In this document: one piece after another, positions 1 to 39,574 of the stretch | How the letters are laid out: each line of letters opens with the position of its first letter | How positions within the stretch are numbered: position 1 is the first letter of the stretch | Position numbers and translations under genes: made by a program | Notes under the pieces: model-generated | Told to the model about the DNA's origin: nothing | Database searches by the model: none | What the model saw: only the letters and a program-made list of their open reading frames with translations | Source of the DNA: Ulva prolifera | Taxonomy: Eukaryota > Chlorophyta > Ulvophyceae > Ulvales > Ulvaceae | Direction: 5' to 3' | Assembly: GCA_023078555.1 (NCBI GenBank) | Contig: CM041202.1 | Location: forward strand, 1,732,022-1,796,021 | Length of the DNA: 64,000 bases

Positions 1-78
1 GAGGCCTCGCTAACCTCACCACGTACGTAATCTGCCTCCGGCACGATCGGTCACAGAGTAACCAAGTAATAACCCCTC

Positions 79-470
79 ATGAACCAGCATGTTCGTCCAG
101 GCTTCCGTACGGCTTCCGCAAGGCTGCCGGAACGTTCCCGGATCCGTCATCGTTCCGAAATTTTAAGCATTCTTCCTCAAACAGTCCTCTGGATGCATTG
201 CGGATCCTTCGCGCGTTCCGGCACCACTCCGAAAACGTTCCGGCGGTACACCCACGTGGAGTGCACTTGCAAACCACCCGGTCGGAACGCTCGCGGAACT
301 TCCTCCCACACTCCGGGCTGCCTTCCGGACGCTCCGCCAACAGTCCTTTCGCCGTTCCGGGGGGCTCCGCCACGCCTCCGCCCCTCTTCCGCGAGCCGTC
401 CTCGCACCTTCCTCACCACCACGTCACCATTCTCCTAGTGCATGTCAGGGCTCAGGCCATCCACAGAGTA
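79..470. repeat. TTCCG-rich degenerate repeat (copy 1)
   Basis: A stretch unusually dense in the pentamer TTCCG and its complement CGGAA. It is open in several frames only because of this composition, so the ORFs over it are not believed. A second copy lies at about 37540-37945. The two share composition and a common right end, where a CACC/GCCATTCT block is followed by CTAGTG (near 420-440 here and near 37860-37880 there). This reads as two copies of one non-coding repeat or solo terminal region; no coding potential is recognised. Confidence 0.5.
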
Positions 471-18861: not shown

Positions 18862-20448
18862 ACATATATCTAGCAAACAGACGAAGCAAACACACAGACA
18901 CGCACGCACGCGACACCCACCACGCGTAGACGGTGTGTCGACCGCTTGAGCAGCCACATGTTGATAAGGCAGACGATGCCAGAAGAGTGTATACATTACA
19001 CGTGCCGCAAGCTGATGCTGGTGCTGTGATCTGCCTGGCGGGCGGCCTGGTGGTATACATTCGTACCGAGCGGTACGCTGCCGTACACAGGCTGGTCAGC
19101 ACTTGGCTAAATGGCCACACAGACAGCCATTTGGCATGCCATAAAGTTCTTTGTAACGACAACACAATGTGGGTGGTCATAGGGGGAGTGCAGCGGGCAT
19201 TGCCTGCATTGCGCTTTTACCTGCGCAGGCATATGCATGCGTTGGTACGTCGTCGTAAATGTAAAGTGGTCCCTCGTCAGTAAGGGCCACCGTGGTCGCC
19301 CGGTAGGTCCATGTACCGCGGCTCCGAGGTAGCAAGCACAAGCCGGTAGTGTCATCGGTAAGTGGTTTACCATCATGCTACCGCCCGTTCACCCATTCGT
19401 CGATCCTGCCTGTGATATGTCACCTGCAAGGTTGCGTTCACGCCTGATATCGATGTGTGTCGCACCATGCTGAACGGACATAGAGAAGTACGGCAAAGAA
19501 TCTATTCCGATATACGGTGACTGTAGGCCTTCATGATCACGCCAAATAACAGAACGCCACCAAGCCAGAGCTTCCTGATCAGCTCTATGTGCGGTCACGG
19601 TTGTGTGAAGGATGTCAGGTCTGATGCAGGATTCCCCGAAACAAACCCTAAACGTCTGCCCAGGGGATCCAAGATGGAACATCTTCCTGGGCTCAGGTAC
19701 CACACCCGGAAATGGTGGTGGTTCTTGGATGATGGAAGAAATTCGAGACAAGCAGATTACGGCACTTGCATTCACATTTTGAAGGGGGCATCAATTGCAA
19801 GACGAGCACGTGGAAGGGGGGGAGGGCGCGCGCGCACCAACGGCAGCTTCGAGGCGCTGCAGCTCAGCGGCATGCTGCTGCCGATCACTAGGAGAATGGC
19901 GACACTCTGAAACGGATCCGGGTGTCGTCCGCCAGATTCCGAAAGTCCGTTCACTCTCTGATACCTCTCCGACGTCATCGGATGCGAGCAGTCGGATGGA
20001 CCTTGGACTTTGGCACCGAATCATCCGCCGACCCAGGTATAATCTGCCGGACTGTGGACGTACCTTACCGCTGCCAGTGGCCTTCGCATGTCTGCGCCGG
20101 CTGCCATGATACGAGGTCACTTCGGGCCAAGCCCGCGCTGACAGTGGATCGAATGATACTATTGGTTACTTTATTACTACACGCGTATCTGGAAACGACT
20201 GGATTGGACACGGTGCAGGTATATGTGGACCCATACTCTTGGCAACTGACATCGACTTTGGGCAGGAGACGAAGCGGCAGGAAGCTGGAGGCAGGCTCAC
20301 AATAGCGGTGACTTTCTGCATCGCCCAAGATAGCGTTGGTCCGTATTTCAGGCTCGGCAGCAGTCCATGTAGTGTTGGTCGTCGCCCTGTGAATGGTGGC
20401 CGGAAAAGCGTGCACATAGGTTCCTGGATGCTAATGCATGCGGTGGTC
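18862..20448. other. Spacer left of the large transposon
   Basis: No named gene. 19468-19580 repeats 7985-8080. A plus-strand frame 18933-19283 (LVVYIRTERYAAVHRLVSTW) and a minus-strand frame 20415-20065 (EPASSFLPLRLLPKVDV) are open, but have no recognised domain or splice partners. The true left end of the large transposon may lie in this stretch; no terminal inverted repeat was found by eye. Confidence 0.4.
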
Positions 20449-20805
20449 CAGAGTGGCCATTCGGCGAATGGCCACTCTGGCGGAGTTACGTCATCATGCT
20501 CCAGGTAAGGCGTGCGCTCGTCCTCCTGGACACGAATGCATGTGATGGTCCAGAGTGGCCACTCGCCGAATGGCCGCTCTTGCGGGATGACGTCATCGTG
20601 CTCCAGGTAACGCGTGAGCTCATCCCGATTAGTACCTGGCTGCGAGTGCATACGCTGATCCAGAGTGGCCATTCGCCGAATGGCCGCTCTGGCGGGATGA
20701 CGTCATCGTGCTCCAGGCAACGCGTGAGCTCATCCCGATTAGTACCTGGATGCGAGTGCATGCGCTGGTCCAGAGTGGCCATTCGCCGAATGACCGCTCC
20801 AGCGC
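20449..20805. repeat. Left palindrome array of the large transposon
   Basis: Four copies of a 33-bp palindrome at 20449, 20551, 20661 and 20771 (spacings 102, 110, 110). The first is perfect with core GGCCATTCGGCGAATGGCC. The other three have the central G replaced by C (TTCGCCGAA), that is, the opposite orientation, with small mismatches. Each 110-bp unit also contains GATGACGTCATC, itself palindromic, and GATTAGTACCTGG. The same palindrome recurs at 35644-35988 in the right array. Paired arrays of this kind at both sides of transposase genes are expected for subterminal repeats of CACTA-type elements. Confidence 0.8.
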
Positions 20806-21053
20806 GGTTGATCTCACCCTGCCCTACCCGAGTGATCAGGCGCCTTTGCATTCGGGGCCCCCAACTTGGGTCGTGCTTCATGAAAGGGACAAACGGTGGT
20901 TATTGTGTATGATACGGCTAACGTCCAGCGTTTGGAGTTCACCTGGCGTTTAAGTGCACCGCGTCCCTGCTGGCGTCGTATTCCTTCGCCTAGCTGCGCT
21001 GCTCGTGACCAGTTTCCGCTTCCGGCAGTGACCAGAATATTTTTTTGCATACA

Positions 21054-24000
21054 ATGGATCCGCGCCATGCTGCAGCAGTTGCAGGACTGTCAAGTACCCA
21101 GAATGGGCCTACTTCCGCTCGCAGCGGAGACTTACTCGTCGGTCGCATGCGTACTCAGAGAATCCCTGTAGTGGGTACTTTAATTTCAAGGGACGGGCGT
21201 TTTACGGATCGTGCCCGCGTCGGCCGCAACGACGGTCCACTGTCCGGTCCTGGGGTGTCGGTGTGGTGGTCCCTGGGGGTGGTTCTGCGAGACGACGTGG
21301 TGGAGAGTCGGACGAGGGAGCTGGGTACGGCCAAGGAAGTGATTGTCACTACCTGTCTCGCGCTCTCCTCCTGGCTGCACGAGCAGGCAATGCTCGTGTC
21401 CTCGTGGGAGGGCAAAGGGAAGACCCCACATGGCTGCCTGGTGCCCCGGCGGTGGAAGCCCCTGTTGGGAAAGAAAGAGGTGTGTGTGCCCGGTGTGCTG
21501 GTGGATCAGCTGAGCGCGATCTGCATTTACTGCCAGTCCACTGACACGGGGCCCGGCTAACCTGTGGAGTGGGGCCAGGACTCAGTGCCGCCATTTGTGC
21601 AGGTTGAGATCACCGGCCACGTATGTGAGTCTGGCCTCCCTAAGACCAGAATCACAGCGGAGAGAGATCCGGAACTTCGCCAGCGGTTCGATCTTCCTCA
21701 GATCAACGTGGGGGAGAAGCGCAAAGGCCCGGACCCCCCGAGTCCAGACGGTGTGCTCTCTGCACGCATGTTGTGGTGTAACGCAGTCACGTATGCTGTC
21801 CCCACATCGTGCGCGGCATGGCCTCCGCATTCGTGCACAAGTGACATGGGTGTTCTCGGTGCAGTGTATCATTGCTCCACCCCGCGACACGTCGTGTGGG
21901 CCTGGGCTTCCTTCATGTCTGGGCTGTCCCCTCATCGCACCAAGTTGTGGACAGCCGGAAAGGCGTCTCCCGCGGTGGAGGGTCAAGGGTCCTCCAGGAG
22001 CAAGGAGAGACCCACATCCAACCTCCCAGAGGATCTGAACCCGCTGGTGGCGTGGGTGCTGTATGAACACGCACACTGCGCCCAGCTCGAGAGCATGGAT
22101 GAAGATGAGCTCGAGCCGTGTCAGTCGATAGCACGGCACATTGGGGACCGGTGCCACAGGATGTTGGCGAACACAAACGGGGTCCCTGCACAGCCGGTTT
22201 TCCAGCTGACCTCGGGCGCGCCGGTGTTAGTCGACATGCACACCTCGCACTCGGACCTCATCAAAGCTTTCGTGCGCTCCGGTGACTTACCATGACTCCG
22301 GCATGGACAGGGGGACTGCCTGTTGGTCTGTGTGCTGTCCTGTTCTACCCGGTATTCGTGCCTTATCGCATGCATGATCGTGGCCATGGTGCCCCGGGCC
22401 CTGTTTCTGTTGATCCCTCAAGTCTGGCCTGTCACCGGCCTGGGCTCGAGCTGTGTAGTCAGGTCTCTTTGCGTGCAGGATGTCAAGATCCTCGGTGAGT
22501 TTGTCGCCGCGCTCGACAACTTAGGACCCTGGGTAGTGGCTTATGCGGCGGAGCACCCTCTGTTTGATTGTGCAGAGGTGCGAGGTGCCACTGACCTGTA
22601 CATGCCATCGAGAGCTGCGTGTCTGTGCAGAGCTGTATATGCGTTCTGTTGCCCGTCCCCCATTGTTGAGTATACCTGGATCTCGCCGTGCAGGGTGACC
22701 GAGTAGCCCGAGCTCTCCGTTCGGCGTGGAGTTCTGTCCAGGCATTCAACTCCCACATCATGTGGGCATGTGAAGGGCTGCAACTGACCTCTACGGAACT
22801 GGCGTCCTTCGCCACGAATGGGGTCCACCTGTTCATGCATGCTTATCGGCGCCTCGTCGCCGTGGCTGTGACAGGGGACCCGGGGGCGCCTGTCCTGGAG
22901 AGGCGGCGTGTGCAAGACATTCCAGTCTTGGAGCCCAGCCTCCTGGATCCCGCCTTTGCCGCCATCCTGGTGTGCACGGTGAATACCAGCAGTGCGCTAC
23001 CAACCTTTTCGTCTCCATTGTTCAGGAATCAGTTGTTACCTGCTGTAGCCCCCGAGGTGGGGCAAGACTCAGCTTTGCAGACAGTGCTCTCGTCTGAACC
23101 ACTCGGTGCATCCAGGTTTGGTGAAATCGGGGTATGGTCAGCCCGTCAAGAGGCTGGCCGACGACCTGATCCCCTTGTGCCCGCCCCACACGCTGTGGCA
23201 CTGGGCGCTCAGGAGCTGGCGGTACCTTAGCGTGGTGCAGAAAGACACCGCGGGGAGCAGTTCCGGGAAATCAGCATCCCCGTCGGTTGTCCGCCTTAGG
23301 CCAGGATCATTCCCCGAGATCAAGGACTGGGATTATGCCGGCGCTGAAGAGCTTGCCAAGCTGTCCTTGGCCAAGGGGATGCAGAGCTCAAAGTGTTACA
23401 TGTGCGAACCCCCGGTGATGGTCCCTACAGTGTCCAGGAGTGTCTCTTGCAGAACATGCTCCCTGCATGTTCAGTCGTATGCGTCTGAGTTCTGGCCATC
23501 AGATCCTCCTGTTCTTTCACCAACGGGAGCATGTGCTGCTGTTAGGTGATCCAGAGTTGACATGCACGGGCCCTGGGACTACCAGCGTGTTCTGTTTGTT
23601 GTTGGCGACTCTGGTTAATTTTACAGGGCGGAGCTCAATAACATTCCCGAAGGTATCCTCGCCACCCTGCCCGAGGACTTGCGGCAGCCGCCTGTCGTAG
23701 CACCCCAGCCTACCCCTGGGGCAGGGGGTGCCGGTGACACCCCTGCCTCTGGCCAGCGCAACCGTCGACGAACCGGGAAGCACGAGGTAGCTAAAGCACG
23801 TACTAAGTCGCTATTGCTGCGTAAGATGGGCCTGCCACCAGCCAAGAAGGGGGACACAGCCGCTGACGGCACCGACCCCGGCGGCAGCGACACTCAGGAA
23901 TCCGGTGGGGACAGGGGCACCACCCGCCCTGCGTCCAAGGTGGCCACAGGGCCAGAGGTGCTCGGCCCGGGTGCCGCTGCGGGGGGGGGGGCAGCGGGGG

Positions 24001-25372
24001 GCAGTCTCCCAGCCGGGGGGGGGGGTGCGTGTGGCCGTCCCGCAGAGGCTCTGCCGGTCACGGCAGCGACAGGGGGGTTGAGCCTGACTGTGGGGCGGGG
24101 GGTGGTTTGGGGGGGAAAGCAGCGGCGGTGGCAGATTCGGCGGCGAAGGCGGGATTGAACCCCACTGTGAGGGTGGCAGCCACTGGGGGGGCTGCGGAGG
24201 CATTGCCAGTCACAGCGCTGAAGGCGGGACTGAGTCCCGTGGAGGGGAGGGCAGCGGGGGGGGGGGACGCGGAGGCTACGGCAGGCTTGGCGGGGCAGGG
24301 CGGGTTGAGCTCAACGGTGGCGGGGGAGGCGGGGGGGGGGGGGGGCCGCGGAGGCTACGGCAGGCTTGGCGGGGCAGGGCGGGTTGAGCCCAACGGTGGC
24401 GGGGGCGGGGGGGGGGGGGGGGGGGGGCCTGGGGGGGGCTGGGCTGCGGAAGCTATGGCAGACATGGCGGCGCGTGGCGGGTTGAACCCACCAGTGGGGG
24501 GGGAAGTTGTGGGGGATGTTGCGGGGATCCCCTTGCAGGGTCAGGACGCTACAGGTCGTCCAGAAGTGGGCCCCTTTAGCCTGCCTGTCCCCGTGCCGGC
24601 GGGGGGACCGGAACCCGTTCCTACAGGGTTTATGCAACCGGACAGTGCGGAAGGAAGTGGGGGTCTGGTGTACGATCCGGTAGCAGACGCCATGTTTGCA
24701 GATGCTCTCGCTGAGGCAGTGCTGTATCCGGAAGACCACTCCTCAGATGATTTCGGATCCATCAGCTTGGATGACGATTCGGATCGTTCTGACCCAGCGG
24801 ACCCCCGCTGCGCTGAGCACGAAGTGGCGACAGAGGACCCTGAGACTAGGCCGTCCCAAATAATCTACCTGCACGATAGTTCGGGGTCAGTTCGTCTAAC
24901 CGTGGACGAGTCCTTCGAGGAGCAGAAGACCACCCTGCGCATGGCCGCCACTTTCGTATCCCCTCCGGGTGGTTCGGTCGGGCGTGCAGCTCAACTGCGG
25001 CTCATTGTCGTGGCAGTGGACCTGATGTTGGTAAGCACCGCCGGCATGGGTTTGACTAAAGCGGAGCGCTTAGTCCGCATGAAGTCGATCATATCGGCGT
25101 ACGGGCTCCAACCAGATGAAGGCACTGTATCCGAAGTTGTGTCACTGATTCAGACGGTGCGCTCCTCCAAGCAAACTACCCCCGCCAGCCCCCCCCCCCC
25201 CCCCCCCCCCCCCCCCTGGCCAGTCTGTCGCATGGCCGTGGTGGGCCAATTCTCTACTCCCGCTCCCAAGGCAGACGTCCAGTACCCAGGGATGTTGACC
25301 GTGCAGGGACGCAATTCTACAGAGGGCAGCGAAGCCGTCCCAGCCCCGGATCCTGTGGTGAATACTGGTTGA
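21054..25372 (+). CDS. Large transposon-borne protein of unknown function
   Basis: Exon 1 is 21054-21479 (ATG after a T-rich stretch; ends KPLLGKKE at GAG|GTGTGT). Exon 2 starts at 21603 (VEITGHVCESGLPKTRI). Further exons are inferred at about 22482-22670 (DVKILGEFVAALDNL), 22695-23115 (GDRVARALRSAWSSV), 23116-23540 (CYMC ... SCRTC, a possible zinc-binding pair) and 23625-25372. The last part has a basic RNRRRTGKHEVAKARTKS region, glycine/alanine minisatellite repeats with long G runs (24120-24480), an acidic block (SISLDDDSDRSDPAD) and the stop at 25372. The frame shifts between 23679-24158 and 24029-25372 across the G runs, so either an intron or a length error lies there. It converges on the protease gene. 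No family was recognised. Confidence 0.55.
24120..24480 (+). repeat. G-rich minisatellite in the unknown transposon gene
   Basis: Imperfect tandem units containing GCGGAGGCTACGGCAGGCTT, each ending in a G run of up to 17. The frame is Gly/Ala-rich. Unit and G-run lengths differ between copies, and the reading frame depends on them. Probably responsible for the apparent frame change in the host gene. Confidence 0.6.
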
Positions 25373-25450
25373 TGAGCAAAGTCCCTGGGGGATGGGGGCC
25401 TGTGGTCAATACTGGTTGATGAGCTAAGTCCCTGGGGGATGGGGGTGCCG
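25350..25450 (+). repeat. Short tandem duplication spanning the stop codon of the unknown transposon gene
   Basis: AATACTGGTTGATGAGCAAA followed by GTCCCTGGGGGATGGGGG occurs twice in tandem, about 55 bases apart. The stop codon TGA is in the first unit. 25451-26111 between the two convergent genes has no supported feature. Confidence 0.6.
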
Positions 25451-26111
25451 GTAGCACAGCTGCGTGGGAGTACACTTTAATGCGGCGTGCAGTGTCCGCT
25501 AAGCCATCAAGCGTAGAACTTCCCGGCAGTATCAGCATAGTCACTTTGTTAATGCAGATGCTACGGGAATACGTCACAATTCTTCCCATTTCGGCGGTAA
25601 TACAAGCACGGTGGGCCACATCACTGTACAGTGATGCAACCCCGTCTACTAGTGCCATACGCTCTGCTATAATGCAGAGGTTGACCGTTGTACCCGGCGC
25701 CCCTCTAATCCTACAGCGCCGACCTGGTGTAGCCGTTGAGGATTGATAGGATTTTTTACACGAAATAACGATTAGAATACTGAGTCGAACTCCGTACGCA
25801 AACTGTGGCGTCTTGTCTTCTGTAGACAGTGTGTTCAGAACAGTTTCAGCTGTGCCTGCCTGGCAGCAGCCCGCAGCGCTGCAGTCGAGACACCGAGGTT
25901 CACTGCAGCTGCAGCTAAATGGCATCACCTGGCCTGTGGCGTCGGGATCTCCCGGATGCCACCATTCAGTGACTCATACACGCGTCTTCAGCGAAATAGC
26001 CATTAGCTTGTTATACTGCTGACACAGGGTTGCCACTACCGGGCGCGCCTTCTCCAGGAAGGCGTCAAAGCGCGCGTGCAGTTACCACTCCCTGCAGATC
26101 CAGCAGCTTCA

Positions 26112-27167
26112 TCAGGCAAAGGTCCCCACCGGGCCTCCAAGGGGGTGCCGGAGGATAGATGGTGACAATGCTGCGGTGGACATGGCAGGTGCATCGAGTC
26201 GCCCGCACCTCAGCTCCTCTTCGGAAAAGTCTTTGAATGGCGGTGTCTGGAGGTGGCGGTCCCACCTAGCGTCGGCTAGCATCTTGGTGCCGTCCTCGAC
26301 TGATAAGTGTCCCAACTTGTCGCCCCCTCTCCCGCCTCGGTGCCACTCTTGAATGAGGGCTCGAGTGAGGACGATATGGTACAGGACCGCGTGCTGCACC
26401 TTGACGTCCTTGGTGTGTAACATGACCCTTCGAGTCGCCTCGTCACCGTGGATGTCACTGCTGAACACAGTTCCCCCCTCCTGTCGCATGCGGTGGATGA
26501 CGTCGCACACAGCGTCGGCCAGCATGCATGTGAAAAACCCGCAGTCGTGGCCGTTTGGTTGCTGCGGGGTTCCTCCAACCTGGACACCATTGGGGGACGG
26601 TTATAATGCTAATGTTACGTCAACAGATCAAGTCCACCGCAGACCTTGGACGCGGGGTGGTTCCAAAGCGGTACGCTGTCCGGTTTCGGGCAGAGAGGGG
26701 GGGGGGGGGGGGGGGGTCTGGTGGGCGCAATCAGAGGGTGATGTTGTGTCAACGATTGCAGTCCATTTGGTAAGATGCGCGACTGTCAAGGGTCAGAGGA
26801 CAGCATCTGTGTGGATGGTATCGTAGGAGAACAGTGGGACGTGGGCATTGTACCTTCGCCAACTTCAGGGTTATCCTAGCGGTGGATTCGGTCGGCCGGG
26901 TGGCCAGTCGGACGTTGTGTCGGCGGCCCACTGCTTTTACCCGAGGCCGGGTGGTAGATGGGGGGTCTTCCGGGGGGGAGGGGGCCCGGCCCTCGGGGCA
27001 GTCAAGCGCCATGCACAGAGCCTCACTCAAGACGTCCCTGGCCCGTTCAGCGGTGCCTGAGCCGGCGCTGATCAGGCTGTCAAAGAACGACACAGTCGGC
27101 GCCTCATTCTGCTTCATACGCCCTGCATTATGGCTGAAACGTCAGTAGTGGCGTTCAGCGGGACTAC

Positions 27168-27207
<40 letters not shown>

Positions 27208-29367
27208 ATGGGGGGGGCGGGGGGCAATATGACAGTCCTACGCACGGCAGGCTACCTCATCACAAAGTCAGCTGCGGCGGGAGAGCGTACATGGGTGCCA
27301 GATGACAGCCAACATCCAGTGGCCGTTCCGGGGGACAGGGACTAAGACACATTCTTGCTCAAAGGTGTGAGCTCTGAACAACCACCGCCCCATAAATCTG
27401 GTGCGTTTGCTTGACCAGTCTGCGTCCGCATCCCCAGTACATATCCCAGCCATATTCTGGCTAGGCGTTGCAATGACGCCCTGCCCGGCCAGCGCGACAC
27501 ACCTACTCAAGGCGTAGTCAACGTGTGTACTCTCGGCCCAGGCGGTGGGCCAGCCTCTCGCGAGGGTTTCCAGACCGACTGTAACAGACACCCGAGCATC
27601 CCCAAAATGCCCTAGCTGCAAGGTCACACCCCCCACCACATGCGGGAACCTCTCCCCATCGTCGTCGGAGGAGGACACTACGGTCGGTTCAGCTGCCTCC
27701 TGTTTTGTGTCGGCAGCGGATGTACCGGCGTCTTTGGAAGTGGACCCCCACTGCTGCTTCAGCTTGCCCGGAGGCTTTGCAGGGAAGTTTGTGACCCAAT
27801 CCGGTGGCACCACCGGAGGGTGTGCCAGGAGGGATGGTGACAGCCGCGGCTTATCCTTACCGGCGGCCGAAGGCTCCGGGACGTCCGGGGCAGGAGGAGG
27901 TGCGGACAGGATTGGTCCCTCTTGACCGGGTGCTGGACAAGCAGGCTCCGGAGAGGCCCGGAGCGGGGGGGGGGCCTCGCCGATGGAGCAGATGGCTGCA
28001 CCGACTGGGGCAGGTTGGGGCCCCTCGCTAGGGCCATCATCAGGGGTGACGGATGGAACCGGATTGGCATCGGTGTCCGACCTCGCCTTATTGTCTCCTT
28101 CGGCAGGGGGGTCCGCAATGGGCCCTTCCCAGGCGGGGGGATCATCCGGGGGACCTGCCGGCCCCGCGTCTGCGGCAGCTAGTCTGGTTTCGATAGCTGT
28201 AGCGGATTCGACCAGCCGCGGCGGCGGCAGACAGCCACTGGTCCGCGATGGCGACGGCGGCCTCATAGGGCCAACCGGCTGTGGGGACTGCGGGGGCAAC
28301 GCCACAGGGGGAACCCCTACTGCAGCCGGCCCCTCGGGCGGCGGATGATCCCGGCTAAGGATCTGCGCTACGGCCGCAGCCCCCCCCCGTGCGGCACCCC
28401 GTGCCCCCCTGGGCCACCTAATTCGGGCGGGCTGCTGAAGACTGGTGCCCCGATCTGCGCGCCCTCTACCCGGAGCCCGTGCCCCTCGTGCCTCGCCAAC
28501 CCGCTGCTGCTGCCGCGGATGGGTGTGTCTGCCACGCCCCTGCCTTCGGACACCCGGGCCTATGCTGGTGCCGCTGGACTCTGTTGGCGGCGGGGCAGCG
28601 GCTGCACCCGGTCCTGGGGCTGTGGCGGTGCCGGTGACTCCCCCAAGAGCGGCGTCGGGTCCCCCCCGGTCTTCACCGTGCGACCCGCCCGCCCCACCCC
28701 TATCTAGCTGTAACGCCAACATGGGCGCCTGCAGAGGCCCCACCTGAACCTCGGAGAGAGGCCACTTCGGATTTGGAGTCCGTGCGAAGTTTGCCTCACA
28801 CGTTATCCACTCGCAGATCACGTCTGTCCCGCCCGTGTGCCGCACACGTTCGAGCAGGCCGCCAGCGTCTTCAATGATGCCCGCGCCGACCTGGCAAGAC
28901 CGGTACAGCACGATCTCCTGTGGCGCGCACGGGGCCTTGGTATGGACCGCGCGCTCGAATGCGATCATCCGGAGGTCGTGCCAGAGGGACTTCATCTTCT
29001 GCTCTACCTGCGCGGCGTGGTCGGCGGTGTGTGAAGCCTCTACACTCTCCTTCATCGCCCGGATCGAGTCCAGGTACATTTCTAACCCTTCCCCCCCGGC
29101 CTCGACTATAGAGCCCACCATGGTAACATCTACAGTCGTTAATAGGTAGGCGTTGGCCATGAAGTCTATCGGGAACCCGGGCTTCCGGGTACAGATCGTT
29201 AGTGCTGGGATTGGCTGGCCAGGCGTCCAGTTACCCTTCAGGGCGGTTTCCAGGAACCGCTGGAAAGACGAGTCACACGAACGTTTACTACGAATTGTCG
29301 CAAGGTAGGACCGCAAGTCTCCGTCCGTTATCATACTGGCACACATCGTATGGACTGTACACCGCAC
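26112..29367 (-). CDS. Ulp1-type (C48) cysteine protease of the transposon
   Basis: Three exons on the minus strand: 29367-27291, 27122-26854 and 26579-26112. Splice phases agree (phase 1 at CCAT|GTACGC with CTGCAG|GG; phase 0 at GCGAAG|GTACAA with TCCAG|GTT), giving about 937 aa. Residues 1-220 look folded. Residues 220-560 are Pro/Gly/Ala-rich and probably disordered. The C-terminus is a Ulp1/SENP catalytic domain with all signature elements: the His strand VLVPVPRNGHWMLAVIW, the Asp strand VSFFDSLIS, and the oxyanion-hole Gln with catalytic Cys in TPQQPNGHDCGFFTC. Such proteases cleave SUMO-like modifiers and are found as second genes in some CACTA, Mutator and KDZ transposons. The 5' start could be the ATG at 29367 or the in-frame ATG some 11 codons later. 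Confidence 0.85.
27170..27206. repeat. Homopolymer run of 37 G in intron 1 of the protease gene
   Basis: On the coding (minus) strand this is a run of 37 C, placed about 48-84 bases upstream of the acceptor at 27122, where a polypyrimidine tract is expected. Intron 2 (26580-26853) likewise holds 20 G at 26697-26716. The placement suggests these runs serve, or began, as polypyrimidine tracts. Confidence 0.8.
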
Positions 29368-29657
29368 AGTAACGTTCTATCCGCGCTATCGCGACGCCGT
29401 CTCCCTACATCAACTGCATCAGACCTTGCACCTACCATTGATCTGTCCGCTGGACCTGCGACGTGCACTAACAGACGACACCGACGCTTGAAGAGGGAGC
29501 GAAAGTGGCCACGAGCGCACACCGCAGGACGTGGGTTGTATGGCTCCAACGAGGGTGGCGCCTGTAGACACGCACTGGCGGGGAATCTGGTCCCCCCCGT
29601 GGCTTGCTGGCAAGTTTGGAAAATGCAAAGTGGGCACAACTGGGATTGCAGTCAATG

Positions 29658-29710
29658 ACAAGACCACCGCCAAATGCCTTGCTGACGAAGGCATTTGGCG
29701 GTGGTCTTGT
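29658..29710. terminator. Perfect 23-bp hairpin just after the transposase stop
   Basis: Arms 29658-29680 and 29688-29710 are exact inverted repeats separated by GCTGACG. The hairpin starts five bases beyond the transposase stop codon at 29715, on its 3' side, in the 350-bp gap before the protease gene. It could be an mRNA 3'-end or insulating structure. Equally it could be a small fold-back duplication or a MITE-like scar. Confidence 0.5.
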
Positions 29711-29714
29711 ACAA

Positions 29715-32700
29715 TTACACAGTTCGGCCAGAAGCCTTGTTCGCAGTGGCCCAATACTGCACATTTTGTGCACCCCTCCGGACTGGAACTAACTGGCATG
29801 GAACTGCGTCCAAGTCTACGACGTATCTGCCGCCATATGCCCGAGACCCCCTGTTTGCACCCGCCACACCGAAAAACTCAGGGGGACGTTTCAACACGGG
29901 ATCTGGGGCGCGGGCTCCCGGGGTGGCTGGCAAGGTGCAATTATACAGATCAGCAACCCCCAGGTACAATGGGTTTGGTTTCGCAACACATGACACGCAA
30001 CTCACGCCATCCCGGGGCTGCAGACACGCCCGGATGAAATACTGCAGTTCCCCGACGAAATACGTCACTGTCCCGCCACCCCCGTCCCCGTCCCCCCCAA
30101 TGAGGTACCTCAAGAGGCACCACTTGTTGTCTTTCTTCCCTTGCGTAGACTGTTGCGCGCAGCTGAACATGTCTGCAACGAGGGATTGCATCTGATGGAA
30201 CTTCATAAGTGTCACTGTACCCTCACGGCGAGCCTCATCAACAGTGCCATCCACCTTCAGGCCCAGAGCTCGGTGGATGGCCGCGCGACGTGCATATCCA
30301 ACCCCCAGGCGACAGTGAGTTGGCCAGCCCTCCTCCTGTAGGGAATCCTGATGGAAGAGGAGGTACGGCAACCCTGTCAGCTCATCTCCCACGAAGTCAA
30401 GGGGGAGGACCTCTGCTGTCTCAGACTGGGCAGGAGCCCTGCCCACCCCGACGACCCTGCCGGTGATCCGGTCGCTGTCAACTGATTGATCCCCGTCAGC
30501 GGATCTTCCATTGCGAGTTCGTGCCCGCCGGCGTTTCTCCGTCGCTATGGCAGCCGACAGTGAGGTCATGGCAGCAGGCAGTGAAGCTGCATCATGTAGC
30601 AGCCGCATACATGTGCGGCGCAGCAGTTCATCGCTCACGTATACTTGTTCAGGGCAACGAGTTGATCGATATTTGATCAGCCTCTTCAAGAGCTGGACCA
30701 TCCGCTCGATCCAGAATTCAAGACTGAAGAAGGATGCACCGCAGCACCTCACCTGATCCGGAAGGTGACAAGCTGCCAGATGCAGCTTGTACGTGCTGAG
30801 AGCGGCGCCCTCAAACGTCTCCTCCGCCAGCTTGGCGTACTGCAGCATCAATCGCTGTGCTTCCGTGATTCGGGCCGGTGTGTGCTGACCCTCTTCATAT
30901 CTGAGAAAGTAGAGGGCCCCTGCTCGCAGGAGCCCCCACGACAGCTCAAACACACTGCGTATGCGTTTCTCGGAGGCTTTCCACGGGAGATCGTGCAGGA
31001 GGTACAGCGAGAATGTCTCGGTGAAGGCCAGCCAGTCTTCCATGAGCCAGCGACTGCGGTACCTACGCAAACAGTCACCCTGACTCATACGGGCTGCTTC
31101 AACAGGAGTGTACATGGTTCCCTTGTCCAAGTAACGGTATGACAAGTGGCGTAGCCTCGGATGCGAGCAGGGCGTGCAGGCTATGGGACTGCGCACTTGG
31201 TGATGTCGGAGTACACCTTCTTGAAAAGAGAGGTCTGCATGATGTGGGGCGCTCTGGCAGCTATCGCCTTGACGACATCCTCTGGCAGTCGGAACAGGGC
31301 CCGGAGGCCCGTCAATGGCGCCTTCTTGGACTTCTTCCGGCCCAGGGGAGGGAGCCACTGGTTCCAGAAGTCCATGAGCACACCGAGCAGAAACACGTGC
31401 GCCACTCCGAGCCGGAAGAAATGGCAGGGACTGCAACGTCACAGCGTAATTCATAATCCATTCCAGACTCAAGGGCCGGGCAGGGAGCAGCAGGCTGGGG
31501 GTGCTCGTACTTGAAGTAGGAGAGGAGACTGAAGAGCGGAGAACCTTTCACCCCCAGTAGCTTGTACTCGTCTTTGGCGAGCTTGGCCCTGGACTTCGGT
31601 GTCTTCCGGTCGCAAAAGCGTTTCAAGGTTGGTGCGTGGACCTGCAATACCACAGGCCTGGCCAGGGTTACCACAAGAAAAGAGCCGTATCACCTACGAC
31701 GCGTATTCGGTGTCAGAGGGGTTGGCAGGATGAGTTGCGGCGCACAGAGGGGGGGCCGGGGAGTAGGCCGCATGTGCACAGATGGAAATCGAGGACACTG
31801 TCAATGGAATTGCACCTGAGCAGCGATCTTGTCGCCCTTTCGGCCCCTCGCCAGGATCTCTGCCGCCGAGTACTTCAAGCGGTTGTCTGACTCCCAGGAA
31901 CAGGGCTGCACCTGCTGGGGCTCGGTCCACGTGGTCCGCGGCGGGATGCCACCAGTGTCCGGTTGTACACTCCCAGGCACCATCCGGGGGTTTGCAGCAG
32001 AAGATGCCGCTTCTTCCTCCGGGGTGAGTGATTTCCCTTTCAGAGGCCCGTCGGCATAGCAGGGCACGGGCTGATGCAGAGGGAGGTGGTGTCCCATCCA
32101 CCTGCATCGCCGTGGCATGCATGATAGCAAGTGTAAGCGGGACAGGTACGTGAGGCAGCACTAGCAGGAAAGTGTTTACACACGGAAGTGACCACCACGG
32201 ACCTGACCGTGTTGGCGGGGTAATGCCACACGCCGTTTTGGGCACATCTGAAACATGCCCTCTTCGCTGTGTGGCCGATGCTGTTGGTAAGTTTCTCCAG
32301 CCATGGGATATCCCCCTCCACACAGCACAGCACCGGCCACACGTGCAGTACCTCGCCCCCAGGCAGTGTGATCTCGAGTGCCTCTCCGCCAGCTCCTGCA
32401 TTGAAGCCATCACATGATAGCGGGGACAGACACTACGGGGTCTGGAACTATACACATCACCCGGCAGTGATGAGGCAGGCAAGGTGAGTGCGCGCCCGGA
32501 TCATGCTTCTTGAAGAACGCCATCACGGAATCCAGAATGCTGGCCATGCACGTCGGTTCGGATGGCCCCTCCACCACTCCAAGGGGAATCCAGGCCACAT
32601 TGGTACTTGAGAGATGGGGCGGCAGGTCAAGCAGGCGGATCCCCCAGATGGTGACCCCGTGCTGCTTGTTGACATACAGCTGGGCCCCGTCCCCCCCTGC

Positions 32701-34225
32701 AGGAGACGCGACTGTCGGGACACGAGGCTGAGGGTCTCAAATCGCGGAGTGGCATATGCATGCCGTTTGTGCCTGATAGCCACCTACTCAGTTGTGGAGA
32801 TGGATCGCACCGAGGCTGAACAGCAGGACAAGCTCCCGATGCTTTGGCTTGAGGATTTTTCCCCCACACGCCAGGTTGAGGGCCTTTCCAGCCGGGGAGT
32901 TGAGGAAGCTGCTTTTGTCTTTGACAGCTGTTGCCCTGGCTTCCCGTACGCTCGTCAGCAGCCCCGGCTGCAGGAGGAGGTCTTTCAGCGAGGCTTCTTC
33001 GCCAAAGAAGAAAGCTGAGCGCACTGGGACACCCTTCCCTGTGAGATCGACATCGAATCGCTGTTGACAACAACCAGGAGTTCCGCAGGTGTCCGCCAAG
33101 TGCTGGTGATGGTCACCCGGATCAAGTGGGGGGAACAAGGTCCAGCATTGGGGACAAACGTGGCGCGTCACAGAGGAAACAGGCGGGACACCCAACACCG
33201 CCTTGACGAGGTGAAAGGAGGGGGGGAAAAAGTTGCCATCGGGTAGCAGGAGGTAATGTATGAACCTGCACCACGTATCGACGACCACGTCTTGTATGCG
33301 AAAGAGGCTCTTCAACTGGGCAATCCACATGCACACCGTGAGGACGGTGAGGGCGCTGCCAGTGTATATGTGTTTCATGCGTTGGTCATGCCACCAGGCG
33401 CCCGTGCCCTTCCGGGCCCCTGTGGTGGGGAGCGGGCCGTCGTCATCCGCCTCCTGCATGGGCAACGATCCGGCTAGTCCCACGGAGGAGTACGAGCGGA
33501 TTCACAGCGTTGCATGTAATGGAATTTGAGGACACACCTCGGATTCGTCTGAACTGTAGTCCGTCTCTGAGGAGAAGGCAATGGAGTCTGCGTCTGAGGT
33601 GTCTGAGTCGGCGTCTGAACATTGTGCGGGGCCCTCGGCATAGTCACTTTCGGACGGTGGGGGCAGCTGTACACAATCCCAACACATCAGAGTTGCTTTG
33701 GGCGAGCAGGCAGGATACAGCAAAGGGACAGGAGCGCTGACACCCATGGCCATCACGAGCCGCTGTCATGCAGATCTGCATCATGATCAGGCAATCCGGG
33801 ACTCAGCACGGTCAACTGCCGCAGGTACGCACGTCGAAGAGGTCGTCGGAGTGGGCAGGGTCATTGGGGGGACCCCACATGTCTGGAGGGGATGGTGGTC
33901 TCCCAGAGGGACCGGCCCCGTCGTGTATGCCGATGACGTCATCATCGGCAGCAGCGGAGGTCGGGCCATTGGCTGGCCTCGAGACTGGGCCCGCGTCGTC
34001 GTGTCCACCAGCGGCTCTCCGCGCTGCGGCTGCTGCACTCAGTAACTTGCTGCAGGGAGCGTAATGGTTTTGGGCGGTTGTGTGCCGGGCAAACTTCTCA
34101 CCACAGGCTAGACACTGGTATTTCAACGGTTCCTTTCCCGTCGGCTCGGGAGGGACCAGGCGCTTACAGTTCGCCTTGGCAATCAAGTCGTTCACCTCAT
34201 ACCTCTTCAGTCTAGACTCGGCCAT
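29715..34225 (-). CDS. tnp2/CACTA (Plavaka-like) transposase
   Basis: Multi-exon minus-strand gene. Exon 1 (34225-33833) has an N-terminal zinc finger, CLACGEKFARHTTAQNHYAPC (C-x2-C-x12-H-x3-C). Exon 2 (33666-33538) is acidic (DADSDTSDADSIAFSSETD). Exon 3 (33453-32811) contains a zinc-ribbon CPQC ... CGTPGCC. Exon 4 (from 32696) has DGAQLYVNKQHGVTIWGIRL and NVAWIPLGVVEGPSEP, the start of the tnp2 catalytic domain. Later exons give WPVLCCVEGDIPWLEKL with CFRC (about 32380-32200), KLLGVKGSPLFSLLSYFKYE (about 31560), FLLGVLMDFWNQWLPPL (about 31400-31200) and KLHLAACHLPDQVRCCG with FWIERMVQLLKRL (31150-29715). Internal exon ends after exon 4 are approximate. DNA cleavage and joining at the element's ends is the expected role. 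Confidence 0.8.
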
Positions 34226-34561
34226 CGTAGCCAGCCGTAGTTGAGCATACTTGTGACGAAGTCATACGACAGAGCGGCCTCTGGTGTTTACCGTTCCTAC
34301 GATGGCATTAAGTACCACCAAGACCTCCCTGTCGTCTACCGTGTTCGCCCTGTCGCCACAATATCTGGCGAGGCGCCGGGGTATCGCGGCAGCCAAACCT
34401 TTGAAGGCAGACCGCACGACGACGCTACACCGGCATACCATTCAAAGCACGGAGCAGCAAAGCATGGGCGAACGACGCGATCTGTTACCTGTCATACGAA
34501 AAGACCATCCACAGTACCGACTGTATACGTGTGTTAATTCCGCTTTGCCTAATCCTCCACC
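34226..34561. promoter_or_regulatory. Divergent intergenic region, transposase / fourth gene
   Basis: Separates the transposase start (34225, minus) from the ATG at 34562 (plus; context CACCATGTCC). It probably holds both promoters. No clear TATA box on either side. Open frames here are short and not believed. Confidence 0.45.
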
Positions 34562-37059
34562 ATGTCCAACCTGCAGTTCACGTTCCTCCGCGCCTCGCCC
34601 GTCATCATCGAGAAAGAAGTAGTAGATGATGCTGACAACGGAGCAGGGATGCTTGACGTGCTGGTCAGCAACGTGTGGAGCAGGGGTGCCGGCGTCGACG
34701 GGTTGACTTTGACGTCAACCGTCGACAAAGACAGCTCCGTTGATGTCGACAGTGTCGAGAAACTGATGACGTGCGTAAAGTACTTCTTCAGGAAAGGCAC
34801 AATCGCTGGACTGCTGAAGCCGCCCGTGCTGGTGAAGGCGCTGGGCAAGGGCAGAGGGAGCGTGGGACAAGCGTCGGCAGCAGTCGGCACTGCACACTCC
34901 ACAGCTACGGCCTTGACTGCGGACCCCGAAGCTGCCGTGCGTTGGGACATGATGAAGAATGCGGTGCTGATGTGGACGGAAGGGATGAGATCGAAGGTGG
35001 AGGGAATGGCCACTGCCCACAAGGAAGGCAAGCTAGTGCAGGCACTAGTGAACCTGAATGCCCCAGCCGACGAGAAGGTGTGGGTCGGGAGTATTCTAAC
35101 GATGAAGCAGGCGGACGCACTCGGCAAAGCTGCATATGGGGTACGGCTGCTGTCTCCGACTAACAACGTGATTGCAACCTGAGGTCCACTACCACCCCGT
35201 CAGGGCCACGGGATCGCATGCCACCGACTTTCAGTGTAGTTTCTTGCGGCACTTCACCATCGCCATTCGCGGTCAGAATGCAGTGACGGGTATCGTGTAC
35301 AGGATGGCAAAACAAGTGAAGCGTACGAAGTTGCGACTAATATCAATCATGCTTTCTACAGCCAGCACAACCATTTGAACACCACGACCAAAGAGTGTGC
35401 CTCTGCTGATGCTCGGGTTATGCCGTACCTGTTGCCGTGCCCAACGGTGGCGGAGAAGGGGAGCATACAATATCCGCCCAGACGGAGGTGACCCGATGTG
35501 CAGGAAGTATGCGAGACGGGCGTGGGACCATAACACGGCGCTGCGGAGGAATCCCGACTCTCGCGAGAAGAGGAAGCTTCAAGCGGCAATGCAAGTATTC
35601 CAGAACTCCAAGGCATGTCCTCCTCCTTGGCCAGAGCTGGAGTGGCCATTCGGCGAATGGCCAATCCAGCGTGTCATGCATTGTCTTGCACTGCACGGGC
35701 CTGGAGTGGCCATTCGGCGAATGGCCACTCCAGCGTGTCATGCATTGTCTTGCACTGCACGCGCCTGGAGTGGCCATTCGGCGAATGGCCACTCCAGCGT
35801 GTCATGCATTGTCTTGCACTGCACGCGCCTGGAGTGGCCATTCGGCGAATGGCCACTCCAGCGCGTCATGCATTGTCTTGCACTGCACGCGCCTGGAGTG
35901 GCCATTCGGCGAATGGCCACTCCAGCGCGGCGCGGCCTGCATGAATCTGCACTTGCATGGGCACTGACTGGCCATTCGGCGAATGGCCACTGTGTTCCAA
36001 CAAACGTGATTCGTGCGCAGTTCACCGTGAGAGGAGACCGCCTCCCTATTGCTGACGAACCCATGAAAACCCCCGAGGCATGGGCTATGGAGGACGGTCT
36101 GTATGTGTGCGAAGGAATCGCCAAGGTTGCTGCAGCCAAGCGCGCCCTCGAAGGGACCGCTGACTCTCCCGTCCAACGGGGCAAGAGACCAAGGAAGACC
36201 GGGAAGGTACAAACTCACCACACGCTGTACTGCCCGCCTGAGGGTGGCCATTAAGTGGTACCAGGATTGCACGGGCGCCTGTGTGAGCGGCATGTGCCAT
36301 GATTCGAGACAGCCATGCGGGTACAGGCTCCTACCGCATCCAAGTCAGGAAGACGGGGCACTCCTTCCAGCAGCGGACGGCGCACAATGCTCGCTGACTT
36401 TTCTCCCCGGCGGCCAGGCCTCCAGCGAGAACCAAAGGGAGACCGCAATGCTGCTCAGGACAGTGAGCACCAGCCGGACGAGGTGGGTCACGATCAGACG
36501 GAGGAAGATGAAGAGCCTGATTCTCCCCAGCGTGCAGACGATCGATGCAAGTCCCCGGAGATGGAACTACAAGACGTTGCGCCGGTATGTCCTCTTATGG
36601 TTTGTGCCAATGTGTGCCTAGTCCGATTTTAATTGCCCCACCCATCATCAGCCCAGGTGTAGAAGCGCATGTTCGTTGCAGAAGCCCAACAGAGCTCTCG
36701 AGAAGCGAAAGGCCAAGGCAGACAAGGAGGCCGCCCTACAAGCGCGTAGCGATATTCGGAAAAAGATTGAGGATTGCAAGGCTAAGCAGGCAATGCATCA
36801 GCCCAAAAGCAAGGGTCCGAGCGTGCAGAAATTGAAACAACAGATTAGTGTATTGACGGTATGTCACTACCCCGATACACTTGATCCGACATGTGACACC
36901 AATGTCTGCAATCCCTGGTAGTAGCACCATTTGTGTGACAGTCACTCGGACAACGACTGCATCGGAGCCGTGCACTCATGCAGATGGTATTGCATGCAGG
37001 ACGAGTTATCAAAGGTTCAAGACACCATAATTGACGGCCTCCCGGATGAGGACGAGTAG
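34562..37059 (+). CDS. Spliced gene of about 499 aa in the transposon, unknown; TnpA-like candidate
   Basis: Seven exons fit by splice site and phase: 34562-35167, 35303-35424, 35504-35594, 36021-36206, 36327-36584, 36682-36858 and 37000-37059. Donors include GTATGT twice; acceptors are all CAG. The N-terminal 200 residues (MSNLQFTFLRASPVIIEKE; MMKNAVLMWTEGMRSKVEG) look globular. The middle is basic (KYARRAWDHNTALRRNPDSR). The C-terminal third is charged and helical (KRKAKADKEAALQARSDIRK, KLKQQISVL) and ends in acidic DGLPDEDE. Intron 3 (35595-36020) contains the whole right palindrome array. The gene is divergent from the transposase. By analogy with En/Spm TnpA, which binds subterminal repeats, a repeat-binding role is inferred; no domain was recognised. 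Confidence 0.6.
35638..35990. repeat. Right palindrome array, inside intron 3 of the fourth gene
   Basis: Six copies of GGCCATTCGGCGAATGGCC starting at 35644, 35708, 35772, 35836, 35900 and 35970. The first five are at exactly 64-bp spacing, with near-identical linkers (GTCATGCATTGTCTTGCACT and GCACGCGCCTGGA). With flanks, each is a 33-bp palindrome, CTGGAGTGGCC...GGCCACTCCAG. All have G at the centre, whereas three of the four left-array copies have C, so the two arrays are mostly in inverted orientation. Because 64 is not a multiple of three, the translated repeat cycles through EWPFGEWP, VAIRRMAT and SGHSANGH, with no stops in any of the three. Confidence 0.85.
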
Positions 37060-37540
37060 ACATGCCAGTGCATTGCTTGCTTGTAGTTGGGTCACCTCAG
37101 GACCATCTTGCAGCCTGTACATAGGTCCTTTGCCCGGTCATGTCCAGGCAATGTCAGGGAGTCTGTCCTGAGGGAATGTATGGGAGTGTGAGCTATGTAG
37201 GAAGCTCGATATGAACAAGGAAAGCGCAAGCCATGTAAGCACCTACATCATATGAATGCAGGCATGTTGCCATCTCCAGTGCCGTGTACATGTGCCTCAA
37301 CTGATAACAAACAAATCCACCCCATCATGCTTCCACGAAACCGCTCTCCTGCCTTCACCCTGCTTACACGAGCGCGACCAAGTCTGATCCGGAAATGACG
37401 CCCATGACGCCTCTGCTGAAGCATGGCGCCACGCGCGTGTCCACAAGTGCACATCATTCGTGACCATGCGTGAGTACCCCAAGCCATACGGGTACAAGAC
37501 GTGGGGAGGCCACCACTCCTTAGGCCCAGCCCGTACTTCC
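37060..37540. other. Spacer right of the fourth transposon gene
   Basis: No gene supported. The right end of the large transposon is expected somewhere from 37060 to 37560. No inverted match to the left side was seen by eye. Confidence 0.4.
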
Positions 37541-37945
37541 CGCATCCCCGAGGCGGACGTCAGACGGATACGTGTCGGATCCGGAATTTAGTGCATCCGT
37601 CCGTAGCCCGTCCGCCGGACGCATAACGGAACCGACTTCTCTTCCGTACATCCTCCTGTTGTGCTCCGAAGACAGGCTCGCCACAGAAGGCGTTGCCCTG
37701 GGGCGTACCGGACGGGAATCGGAAAATCCTACCTACCTCTGCCCCACCTCCGCCACAACGATCCGATACTCCGTGCAACCTACGTCCGGCTTCCACCGAC
37801 TCTCCGAAGGCTCTCCAACTGCCCCTCCGTACACACTACGTCAGCTCTCCGAATCACCGTGTCGCCATTCTTCTAGTGGATGGCTCTCGAGTGCAGCCGC
37901 GGCCGCCTGTAGCGTCACGGAAGCTCCTCATGAGGCCGGACGTCG
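37540..37945. repeat. TTCCG-rich degenerate repeat (copy 2)
   Basis: Same composition and right-end sequence as 79-470. It runs up to the left edge of duplication copy 2 at about 37931. At the equivalent edge of copy 1 (8081) there is instead the element shared with 19468-19580, so the duplication boundary here coincides with a repeat. Confidence 0.5.
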
Positions 37946-38003
37946 ACACCGCTGGTCCACCCGGAATGTGCTCAGTAGGCTACCGAAGAGTGAACGGGAA
38001 CAG

Positions 38004-38064
38004 TTGATTCCGATGAGATTCGGTTTCAGTGTTTGTTTTCTTCCGTTCACTCTGTTGTAAATGC
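38004..38064 (+). mobile_element. LINE A 3' end insertion, 61 bp
   Basis: TTGATTCCGATGAGATTCGG to TCTGTTGTAAATGC inserted between an 11-bp target-site duplication AACGGGAACAG (37993-38003 and 38065-38075). Copy 1 has the empty site at about 8143-8153. Confidence 0.85.
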
Positions 38065-38124
38065 AACGGGAACAGACATGTCTGCTCTGTACAAGCAAAA
38101 CAAGCATCTCTAGGCTACAGAAGG

Positions 38125-39520: not shown

Positions 39521-39574
39521 TTCCAAGCTCGCATCACGCAGTCGTGTCACAAGCCATAGGCCACACAGCTGAAG

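What the first reader, a model, noticed from the sequence alone, without database searches (positions are those of the whole stretch)
20449..37059. A four-gene, protease-carrying tnp2 transposon with matching palindrome arrays on both sides
One region holds a tnp2-type transposase, a separate spliced Ulp1 protease with intact His, Asp, Gln and Cys motifs, a large unknown protein and a second unknown protein of about 499 aa, framed by arrays of the same 33-bp palindrome. Ulp1 genes are known passengers of some CACTA, Mutator and KDZ elements. The combination of four genes with long paired palindrome arrays is not one I recognise. All frames of the protease and most of the transposase are open, which suggests recent activity.
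Basis: partly seen in the sequence, partly recalled or inferred. Interest (0 to 1): 0.9.

Follow-up and report, generated by a model that had tools for sequence, protein, structure and literature searches.

The report
Four-gene jumping gene with self-labels
This stretch is an 18,000-base cut-and-paste transposon of the CACTA kind that carries four genes together, and related families carry their own version of the same mirror-image DNA label near their ends, which suggests that each family encodes a protein that reads its own label.

Summary
The region is one CACTA (EnSpm) transposon, window 19886-37878 (17,993 bp), with CACTA...TAGTG ends and a 3-bp target duplication (GAT). From 100 listed ends (of 195), 30 TIR-bounded copies were paired; 23 of 30 hold probes of all four genes. 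The transposase shows the D, D, C(2)C, H(4)H, E order of the CMC group; the Ulp1-like protease keeps His, Asp, Gln and Cys motifs. Left ends of three copies with different flanks are 99.2-99.5% identical, so movement was recent. Beyond that: (1) the gene set recurs in families whose transposase is about 79% and 58% identical, once with the left gene and protease inverted as a block; (2) the palindrome arrays are family specific. The one distant-family right end read carries another palindrome of the same 13-1-13 design in the homologous intron of the fourth gene. Of listed sites, palindrome 1 lies near its own TIR in 45 of 50, palindrome 2 in 70 of 100. I read the arrays as binding sites of an element-encoded dimeric protein (TnpA/VANC-like), probably the fourth gene's product; that step is inferred. 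New variant of a known kind.

The parts
19886..37878 (.). complete CACTA/EnSpm element, 17,993 bp
   Evidence: ends shared with four complete copies (c2, c3, c4, c6); homology stops at the same bases
19883..19885 (.). target site duplication, left copy (GAT)
37879..37881 (.). target site duplication, right copy (GAT)
19886..19911 (+). left terminal inverted repeat, begins CACTAGGAGAATGGCGACAC
   Evidence: 195 matches to the TIR pattern in the genome, 2 in the reversed control
37853..37878 (-). right terminal inverted repeat, ends GTGTCGCCATTCTTCTAGTG
20448..20802 (.). left subterminal palindrome array (4 units, spaced 102-110 bp), upstream of gene A
21009..25372 (+). gene A (large unknown protein); conserved blocks in frames 21009-21560, 21561-22295, 22670-22907, 23116-23401; exon limits not settled, nor whether one gene spans all of it
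   Evidence: own-genome hits in three families; 33-34% identity to an open 472-aa frame of a distant family; codon phase in three windows, 22820, 23180 and 23300
26112..29376 (-). Ulp1-like (C48) protease gene, spliced; His, Asp, Gln and Cys motifs intact; splice sites not settled
   Evidence: PF02902 3.3e-12 for hand-joined pieces; 51% identical homologue over 97% of the 702-aa frame
29718..34225 (-). transposase gene, spliced; C2H2-like finger near the N terminus (by eye); D200, D317, CFRC 336, HLAACH 662 in the partial model
   Evidence: codon phase, exon model, start and finger read, motifs kept in a relative
34562..35140 (+). gene U exon 1 (193 aa)
   Evidence: 42% identical to the homologous exon of a distant family, same splice point
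35303..35394 (+). gene U exon 2
   Evidence: GT-AG, same phase as in the distant family; limits chosen by hand
35504..35594 (+). gene U exon 3
   Evidence: as exon 2
35595..36020 (+). gene U intron 3, filled by the right palindrome array (35637-35995)
   Evidence: the homologous intron of the distant family holds its own array
36021..36206 (+). gene U exon 4
   Evidence: as exon 2
36345..36584 (+). gene U exon 5 (start uncertain; twelve stop-free acceptors from 36309 to 36516)
36682..36858 (+). gene U exon 6, lysine- and glutamate-rich, coiled-coil-like by eye; further exon(s) likely
1..440 (.). right end of a neighbouring element of the distant family (ends ...CACGTCACCATTCTCCTAGTG)
   Evidence: its gene hits at C7:1716402-1729011

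Best explanation
An autonomous-looking CACTA/EnSpm transposon. Shown: it inserts with 3-bp duplications and moves as one four-gene unit (gene A, Ulp1-like protease, CMC-type transposase, gene U). Inferred from the family: the transposase cuts and joins at the CACTA ends. Inferred (about 0.5): a dimeric protein made by the element, most likely U or else A, binds the palindromes near both ends, helps bring the ends together, and counters host silencing or regulates the element, as TnpA does for Spm and VANC for VANDAL. The right array lies in an intron of U, so binding there could also give feedback on U's own transcription or splicing (about 0.25). The protease probably removes SUMO from a host or element protein at the element (about 0.35).
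For: CACTA ends and 3-bp duplications: 12 of 12 facing end pairs under 35 kb that were read at both ends match. Four-gene unit: 23 of 30 TIR-bounded copies hold all probes. Recent movement: left ends of c2, c3 and c6 are 99.2-99.5% identical (best aligned stretch, over 400 bases, of the first 1.4 kb) with different flanks; c3 sits inside the protease frame of an older relative, and the joined flanks minus 3 bp give an uninterrupted 550-aa frame. Transposase: D, D, C(2)C, H(4)H, E order, kept in the relative. Arrays: confined to elements in what was examined; family specific; same 13-1-13 design and same intron although the sequence differs; positions 8-15 of the half-site depart in at most 2 of 37 distinct units each (the units were found by likeness to this consensus); unit number varies between copies.
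Against: No transposition, transcript or binding data. Pfam's tnp2 model (PF02992) does not reach this transposase. No known DNA-binding domain was found in the scanned pieces of U or A, and two structure models of U exon 1 failed (mean pLDDT 37.6 and 36.9). Between close copies U's first open frame shows little constraint (dS 0.084, dN 0.059-0.066). Only one right end of the distant family was read in full. 29 of 100 listed palindrome-2 sites lie near neither TIR. The palindromes could serve as hairpins or cruciforms instead of protein sites.
Confidence: 0.8

Rival explanations
1. The arrays are transposase binding sites: copies of a TIR-like core, so that the transposase itself, through its N-terminal finger, reads both the TIR and the arrays, and U and A do something else.
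For: Each family's half-site shares 7 bases with its own TIR (GAATGGC and GAATGGT), 6 with the other's; shuffled half-sites reach 7 in 89 of 5000 and 229 of 5000. A C2H2-like finger lies near the transposase N terminus (by eye).
Against: The similarity is short and only mildly better than chance. In Spm/En the subterminal repeats are recognised by the accessory protein TNPA (PMC2613891, passages seen).
Confidence: 0.3
2. The arrays act as nucleic-acid structures: hairpins in the intron RNA, or cruciforms in DNA, that regulate splicing or silencing, without a sequence-specific protein.
For: Symmetry is kept while the sequence changes: two palindromes with one design in the same intron; symmetric departures 19 against a shuffle mean of 10.4, reached by 1 of 2000 shuffles.
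Against: Most departures (68) are one-sided, and the inner half-site (positions 8-15) hardly varies within a family, which pure structure would not need; the left array is not shown to lie in a transcript. Concerted spread of units, or replication-linked correction of imperfect palindromes, could also keep symmetry.
Confidence: 0.2
3. The palindrome arrays are selfish tandem repeats without function that rode along.
For: Unit number varies between copies; one copy (c6) has three right units where the window, c2, c3 and c4 have six, and still has intact ends.
Against: Two different palindromes of the same design at homologous places in two families, and the same palindrome in left and right arrays with different spacers and periods.
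Confidence: 0.1
4. The four genes are separate insertions or a chance neighbourhood.
For: Isolated gene hits without a transposase hit within 25 kb: 11 of 96 U, 18 of 91 A, 12 of 84 B, 20 of 91 C48; I take them for truncated copies, assembly ends and cellular Ulp1 genes, untested one by one.
Confidence: 0.02

Closest known systems
CACTA/EnSpm elements of plants (En/Spm, Tam1, soybean Tgmt*; PMC2613891, passages seen)
   Same: CACTA ends, 3-bp target duplication, large size, repeated subterminal motif in both orientations, diverging subterminal motifs between families
   Different: Here the transposase, the protease and two unknown proteins are separate genes on both strands; the motif is a near-perfect 27-33 bp palindrome in regular arrays; the right array lies in an intron of the accessory gene; PF02992 is not reached
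Grapevine Cactavine CACTA families with an ULP1 domain (PMC2528002, passages seen)
   Same: CACTA element that carries an Ulp1 domain (five grapevine families)
   Different: There discussed as a transduplicated domain; here an old, separate gene kept with three others in diverged families
Giant EnSpm and KDZ elements of brown and red algae (PMC12477816, passages seen; its reference 51 on Bostrychia not read)
   Same: EnSpm elements above 10 kb with accessory genes
   Different: The accessory protein named in the passages (ParB-like DNA-binding plus DNA methyltransferase) gave no Pfam hit in the frames scanned here; no palindrome arrays are mentioned in the passages seen
VANDAL elements and VANC anti-silencing proteins of Arabidopsis (PMC10398659, passages seen)
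   Same: Family-specific tandem arrays of a short motif that change quickly and are read by the element's own protein; works-like comparison only
   Different: VANDALs are Mutator-like (recalled), not CACTA; VANC binding is shown there, here it is inferred; the motifs are not described as palindromes in the passages seen

Membership tests
CACTA/EnSpm superfamily | terminal inverted repeats that begin CACTA | tested here: met
   CACTAGGAG.../...CTTCTAGTG in the window and the copies read
CACTA/EnSpm superfamily | 3-bp target site duplication | tested here: met
   12 of 12 facing pairs under 35 kb read at both ends; one wider facing pair (C1:9458015 and 9506022, 48 kb: CCG and CAT) does not match and is not counted; that left end matches C1:9528289 at 70 kb (CCG)
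CACTA/EnSpm superfamily | CMC-type transposase: C(2)C and H(3-4)H between the second D and last E (definition from PMC12730594, passages seen) | tested here: met
   D200, D317, CFRC 336, HLAACH 662, then SLEFWIE, in the partial model; kept in a relative; assigned by eye, no structure
CACTA/EnSpm superfamily | transposase recognised by Pfam Transposase_21 (tnp2) | tested here: not met
   no hit for the 875-aa model; one weak hit elsewhere in the genome. I take this for a limit of sensitivity, not a defining failure
CACTA/EnSpm superfamily | subterminal repeats near both ends | tested here: met
   window arrays at 565-887 bp from the left and 1885-2211 bp from the right end
KDZ (Zisupton) | 8-bp target duplication (PMC12730594, passages seen) | tested here: not met
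   3-bp duplications
Plavaka | termini TGT..ACA or CATCA..TGATG (PMC12730594, passages seen) | tested here: not met
   CACTA..TAGTG
Mutator-like elements with Ulp1 | 9-bp target duplication (recalled) | tested here: not met
   3 bp
TnpA/VANC-like self-recognition system | element-encoded protein binds the arrays | not testable with these tools
   no binding data; no DNA-binding domain found in the pieces scanned
TnpA/VANC-like self-recognition system | arrays family specific | tested here: met
   listed sites, palindrome 1 (50 of 293): 45 within 4 kb of TIR 1, 1 of TIR 2, 4 of neither; palindrome 2 (100 of 497): 70 near TIR 2, 1 near TIR 1, 29 near neither
C48 (Ulp1) peptidases | catalytic domain with His, Asp, Gln, Cys | tested here: met
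   PF02902 3.3e-12 over 115 residues of hand-joined pieces; motifs read

The most novel reading that the evidence does not exclude
The element carries a lock-and-key self-recognition module: a dimeric accessory protein (U) and a palindromic label with a fixed 13-1-13 geometry that co-diverge by family, one label array sitting in U's own intron as a feedback switch, with an Ulp1 protease as a fixed partner that strips SUMO-dependent silencing from labelled copies.
Probability: 0.25. Interest if true: 0.8.

Novelty: new variant of a known kind. Interest (0 to 1): 0.56.

Why it matters
Subterminal repeats and their binding proteins in CACTA elements are known from plants, and how repeat and reader coevolve was left for later work in the soybean paper (PMC2613891, passages seen). 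Here one genome holds several diverged families with the same gene set and, where read, the same label geometry with different label sequence, so the question of how a transposon keeps label and reader in step becomes testable by swapping labels and proteins in vitro. It also gives a case where an Ulp1-like protease is an old, stably kept partner gene instead of a recent capture.

Tried and rejected
KDZ, Plavaka and Mutator were considered because of the Ulp1 gene and rejected on ends and target duplication. Codon-phase analysis among close copies was uninformative (the first attempt failed by a script fault). Between close copies the first open frame of U (34553-35179, a little longer than exon 1) has dS 0.084 and dN 0.059-0.066, which shows little recent constraint and speaks against my reading; against the distant family the differences over 187 codons are 73, 67, 106 at positions 1, 2, 3, a modest excess at position 3. 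A first exon model of U had wrong splice points and stops and was replaced by one chosen by hand so that both families agree. Transposase homologue search outside the genome: none at E 0.001 among the 7,999 candidates scored. Structure prediction of U exon 1 failed twice, so no fold search was run. Rfam: nothing over threshold in the window. A search for the assembly size in papers found nothing; the organism is not identified (size and composition made me think of a green alga; not tested). What I say of print rests on the ten paper searches and on passages of eight papers; no paper was read whole. Rows dropped before counting: further fragments, leaving T 87 of 97, U 96 of 102, A 91 of 128, B 84 of 99, C48 91 of 91. 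In one search only ends on contigs C1 and C2 were entered, where the listed sites lie.
Full report
What it is. Searching the window's own genome (88.9 Mb, 44 contigs, unnamed) with 201 bases of the left array gave many copies. Six copies with 30 kb each were fetched and compared with the window. Four of them (c2, c3, c4, c6) match from window about 19,880 to about 37,880 and stop at the same bases at both ends; c1 is interrupted and runs past the fetched stretch, c5 matches only its first 4.6 kb or so in the 30 kb fetched. At the stops the sequence reads CACTAGGAGAATGGCGACAC... and ...GTGTCGCCATTCTTCTAGTG. The window element is 19886-37878, 17,993 bp, between two copies of GAT. Of facing end pairs under 35 kb that I could read at both ends, 12 of 12 carry identical 3-bp flanks: window GAT, c2 GAC, c3 GAA, c4 ACC, c6 TAT and seven more from the termini loci, GAG, AGA, CAC, ATA, TGG, GTG, ATA. 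One wider facing pair on C1 (48 kb, CCG and CAT) does not match; its left end matches another right end at 70 kb (CCG); neither is counted. The TIR pattern with up to two mismatches occurs 195 times, reversed control 2. These are the marks of a CACTA/EnSpm element.

The genes move together. From 100 listed ends of 195, 30 facing pairs closer than 35 kb were formed; 23 lie between 17 and 21 kb, 5 are longer, 2 are short (3.4 and 7.2 kb). 23 of the 30 hold all five probes (two of gene A, called A and B; C48; transposase; U); of the other seven, four lack only the C48 probe, one lacks C48 and U, and the two short ones hold one gene each. Around 87 transposase hits, all other probes lie within 14 kb, in any orientation, in 24 of 36 close relatives, 12 of 20 at 70-83% identity (11 without the row at C3:6531868, where they belong to the nested copy c3) and 22 of 31 below 70%; five position-shift controls give 3, 2, 2, 0 and 0 of 87. 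With order and orientation fixed as in the window the numbers are 22, 12 and 10, controls 0, 0 and 1. The drop among the distant ones has a cause: in 10 of the 31 the gene A and protease block is inverted relative to transposase and U. Some copies with a 96-97% transposase have gene A at 72-76% and its second block at 59-63% (C1:3851649, C3:4854939, C9:502669), so left halves seem to have been exchanged while the set stays whole.

Recent activity. In the first 1.4 kb of c2, c3 and c6 the best aligned stretch (over 400 bases) is 99.2-99.5% identical, at different places with different duplications. c3 (18.9 kb) lies inside an older relative; joining that relative's flanks minus one 3-bp copy gives an uninterrupted 550-aa frame that resembles the window's protease frame (other two frames 96 and 55 aa).

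The genes. Transposase (minus strand, 34225 to 29718): against the older relative, 22 of 32 windows of 120 bases from 29,780 to 33,500 have at least half of their substitutions at one codon phase, an exon model is open, and the order D, D, CFRC, HLAACH, E, which defines the CMC group according to PMC12730594 (passages seen), is kept in the relative. Pfam's PF02992 is not reached and DUF4218 only weakly. Protease: a 702-aa frame ending just after the His motif, then short pieces with the Asp and the Gln-Cys motifs; joined by hand they hit PF02902 at 3.3e-12; one metagenome protein is 51% identical over 97% of the long frame and ends at the same point. Eleven C48 hits, all beside a distant-family transposase, lie in open frames of 1,037-1,122 aa. 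Gene A: conserved blocks between 21.0 and 23.4 kb, 33-34% identical to an open 472-aa frame of a distant family; exon limits unsettled. Gene U: exon 1 is 42% identical to the distant family; exons 1-4 and 6, with limits chosen by hand so that both families agree, have the same splice phases in both; the start of exon 5 is uncertain. Four metagenome proteins are 82-96% identical to the distant family's U.

The arrays. The left array has four units spaced 102-110 bp, the right one five regular units of 64 bp plus a degenerate one; left and right share the palindrome and little else. The core is confined to elements in what was examined: with up to 4 mismatches 47 in 91,069 bp inside and 0 in 92,931 bp outside five complete copies, and the 50 listed exact sites (of 293) lie either within 3.5 kb of an A or U hit (45) or within 1 kb of a TIR (5, at C1:9458015). 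The right array fills intron 3 of U. In the one distant-family right end read (locus L020, end at C2:3883212) the homologous intron, 828 bp, is filled by about ten units (TRF 10.4) of 61 bp with another palindrome, GAATGGTTGGTGG-C-CCACCAACCATTC; the first palindrome was not found in that 3.5 kb. Both have 13-base arms around one central base. The second palindrome occurs 497 times exactly in the genome, control 0. Palindrome 1 lies within 4 kb of its own TIR in 45 of 50 listed sites, near the other TIR in 1, near neither in 4; palindrome 2 in 70 of 100 listed sites (of 497), near the other in 1, near neither in 29. By nearest gene hit within 12 kb, palindrome 1 goes with the close families in 45 of 50 (5 without a gene), palindrome 2 with the distant ones in 43 of 100, the close ones in 2, none in 55. 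Only 100 of 195 TIR-1 ends were listed. Half-sites share seven bases with their own TIR, mildly better than shuffles (89 and 229 of 5000). Among 37 distinct units, departures from the consensus are symmetric 19 times against 10.4 expected, reached by 1 of 2000 shuffles, while 68 are one-sided and 1 is two-sided but unmatched.

How it likely works. Cut-and-paste by the transposase at CACTA ends follows from the superfamily. Spm's TnpA recognises the subterminal repeats, which are cis-determinants of excision, and is linked to demethylation; VANC proteins bind fast-changing tandem arrays of their own VANDAL family and induce loss of silent marks (PMC2613891 and PMC10398659, passages seen). The family-specific arrays with fixed geometry fit such a reader protein acting as a dimer. 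U is my first candidate because its gene hosts the array and its exon 6 looks like a coiled coil by eye; A and the transposase's finger are not excluded. The function of the protease is inferred from its family only. Against this stand the weak recent constraint on U, the lack of any recognised DNA-binding domain, and the failed structure models.

Known or new. CACTA with Ulp1 domains (PMC2528002) and giant EnSpm elements with accessory genes (PMC12477816) are in print, so the kind is known. In the passages I saw I did not meet a four-gene CACTA set kept through diverged families, or palindromic arrays of one geometry with family-specific sequence inside an accessory gene's intron; the searches were those.

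Noticed in passing
window 1-440: Right end of a neighbouring element of the distant family (gene hits at C7:1716402-1729011), TIR CACTAGGAGAATGGTGACGTGG; 60 exact copies of this TIR in the genome.
   Followed up: partly
window 18685-18923 and 38001-39610: Long inverted repeats on both sides of the element (for example 18817-18861 and 38126-38170, 45 nt, fully complementary); an 80-base piece is 81% identical to the right subterminal part of the distant-family element in L020.
   Followed up: partly
C1:4763677, C1:10276907, C2:5108420, C2:3890536, C2:6991598, C3:2081733, C6:5708898, C7:6241793, C7:6273436, C35:2560 (G000): Distant-family copies in which the gene A and protease block is inverted relative to transposase and U.
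   Followed up: partly
C1:3851649, C3:4854939, C9:502669 (G000): Mosaic copies: transposase 96-97% but gene A 72-76% and its second block 59-63% identical to the window, as if left halves were exchanged.
   Followed up: no
C1:1026588-1027647, C1:3877681-3878193, C1:12340905-12341697, C2:774243-774752 (G000): Palindrome-2 arrays within 2.5 kb of a TIR 2 without a transposase hit nearby: probably non-autonomous or further relatives.
   Followed up: no
window 11490-13451 and 43250-45103: Two long open frames (653 and 617 aa) over resembling CC-rich tandem repeats; no Pfam hit.
   Followed up: no
window 60306-61442: SpoU rRNA methylase gene (PF00588, 9.4e-23), probably a host gene.
   Followed up: no
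C2:3783945 and C2:3862976 (G000): Copies c4 and c5 share the left flank shown and are 100% identical in the left end compared: probably a duplication of an already inserted element, with c5 truncated or interrupted.
   Followed up: partly
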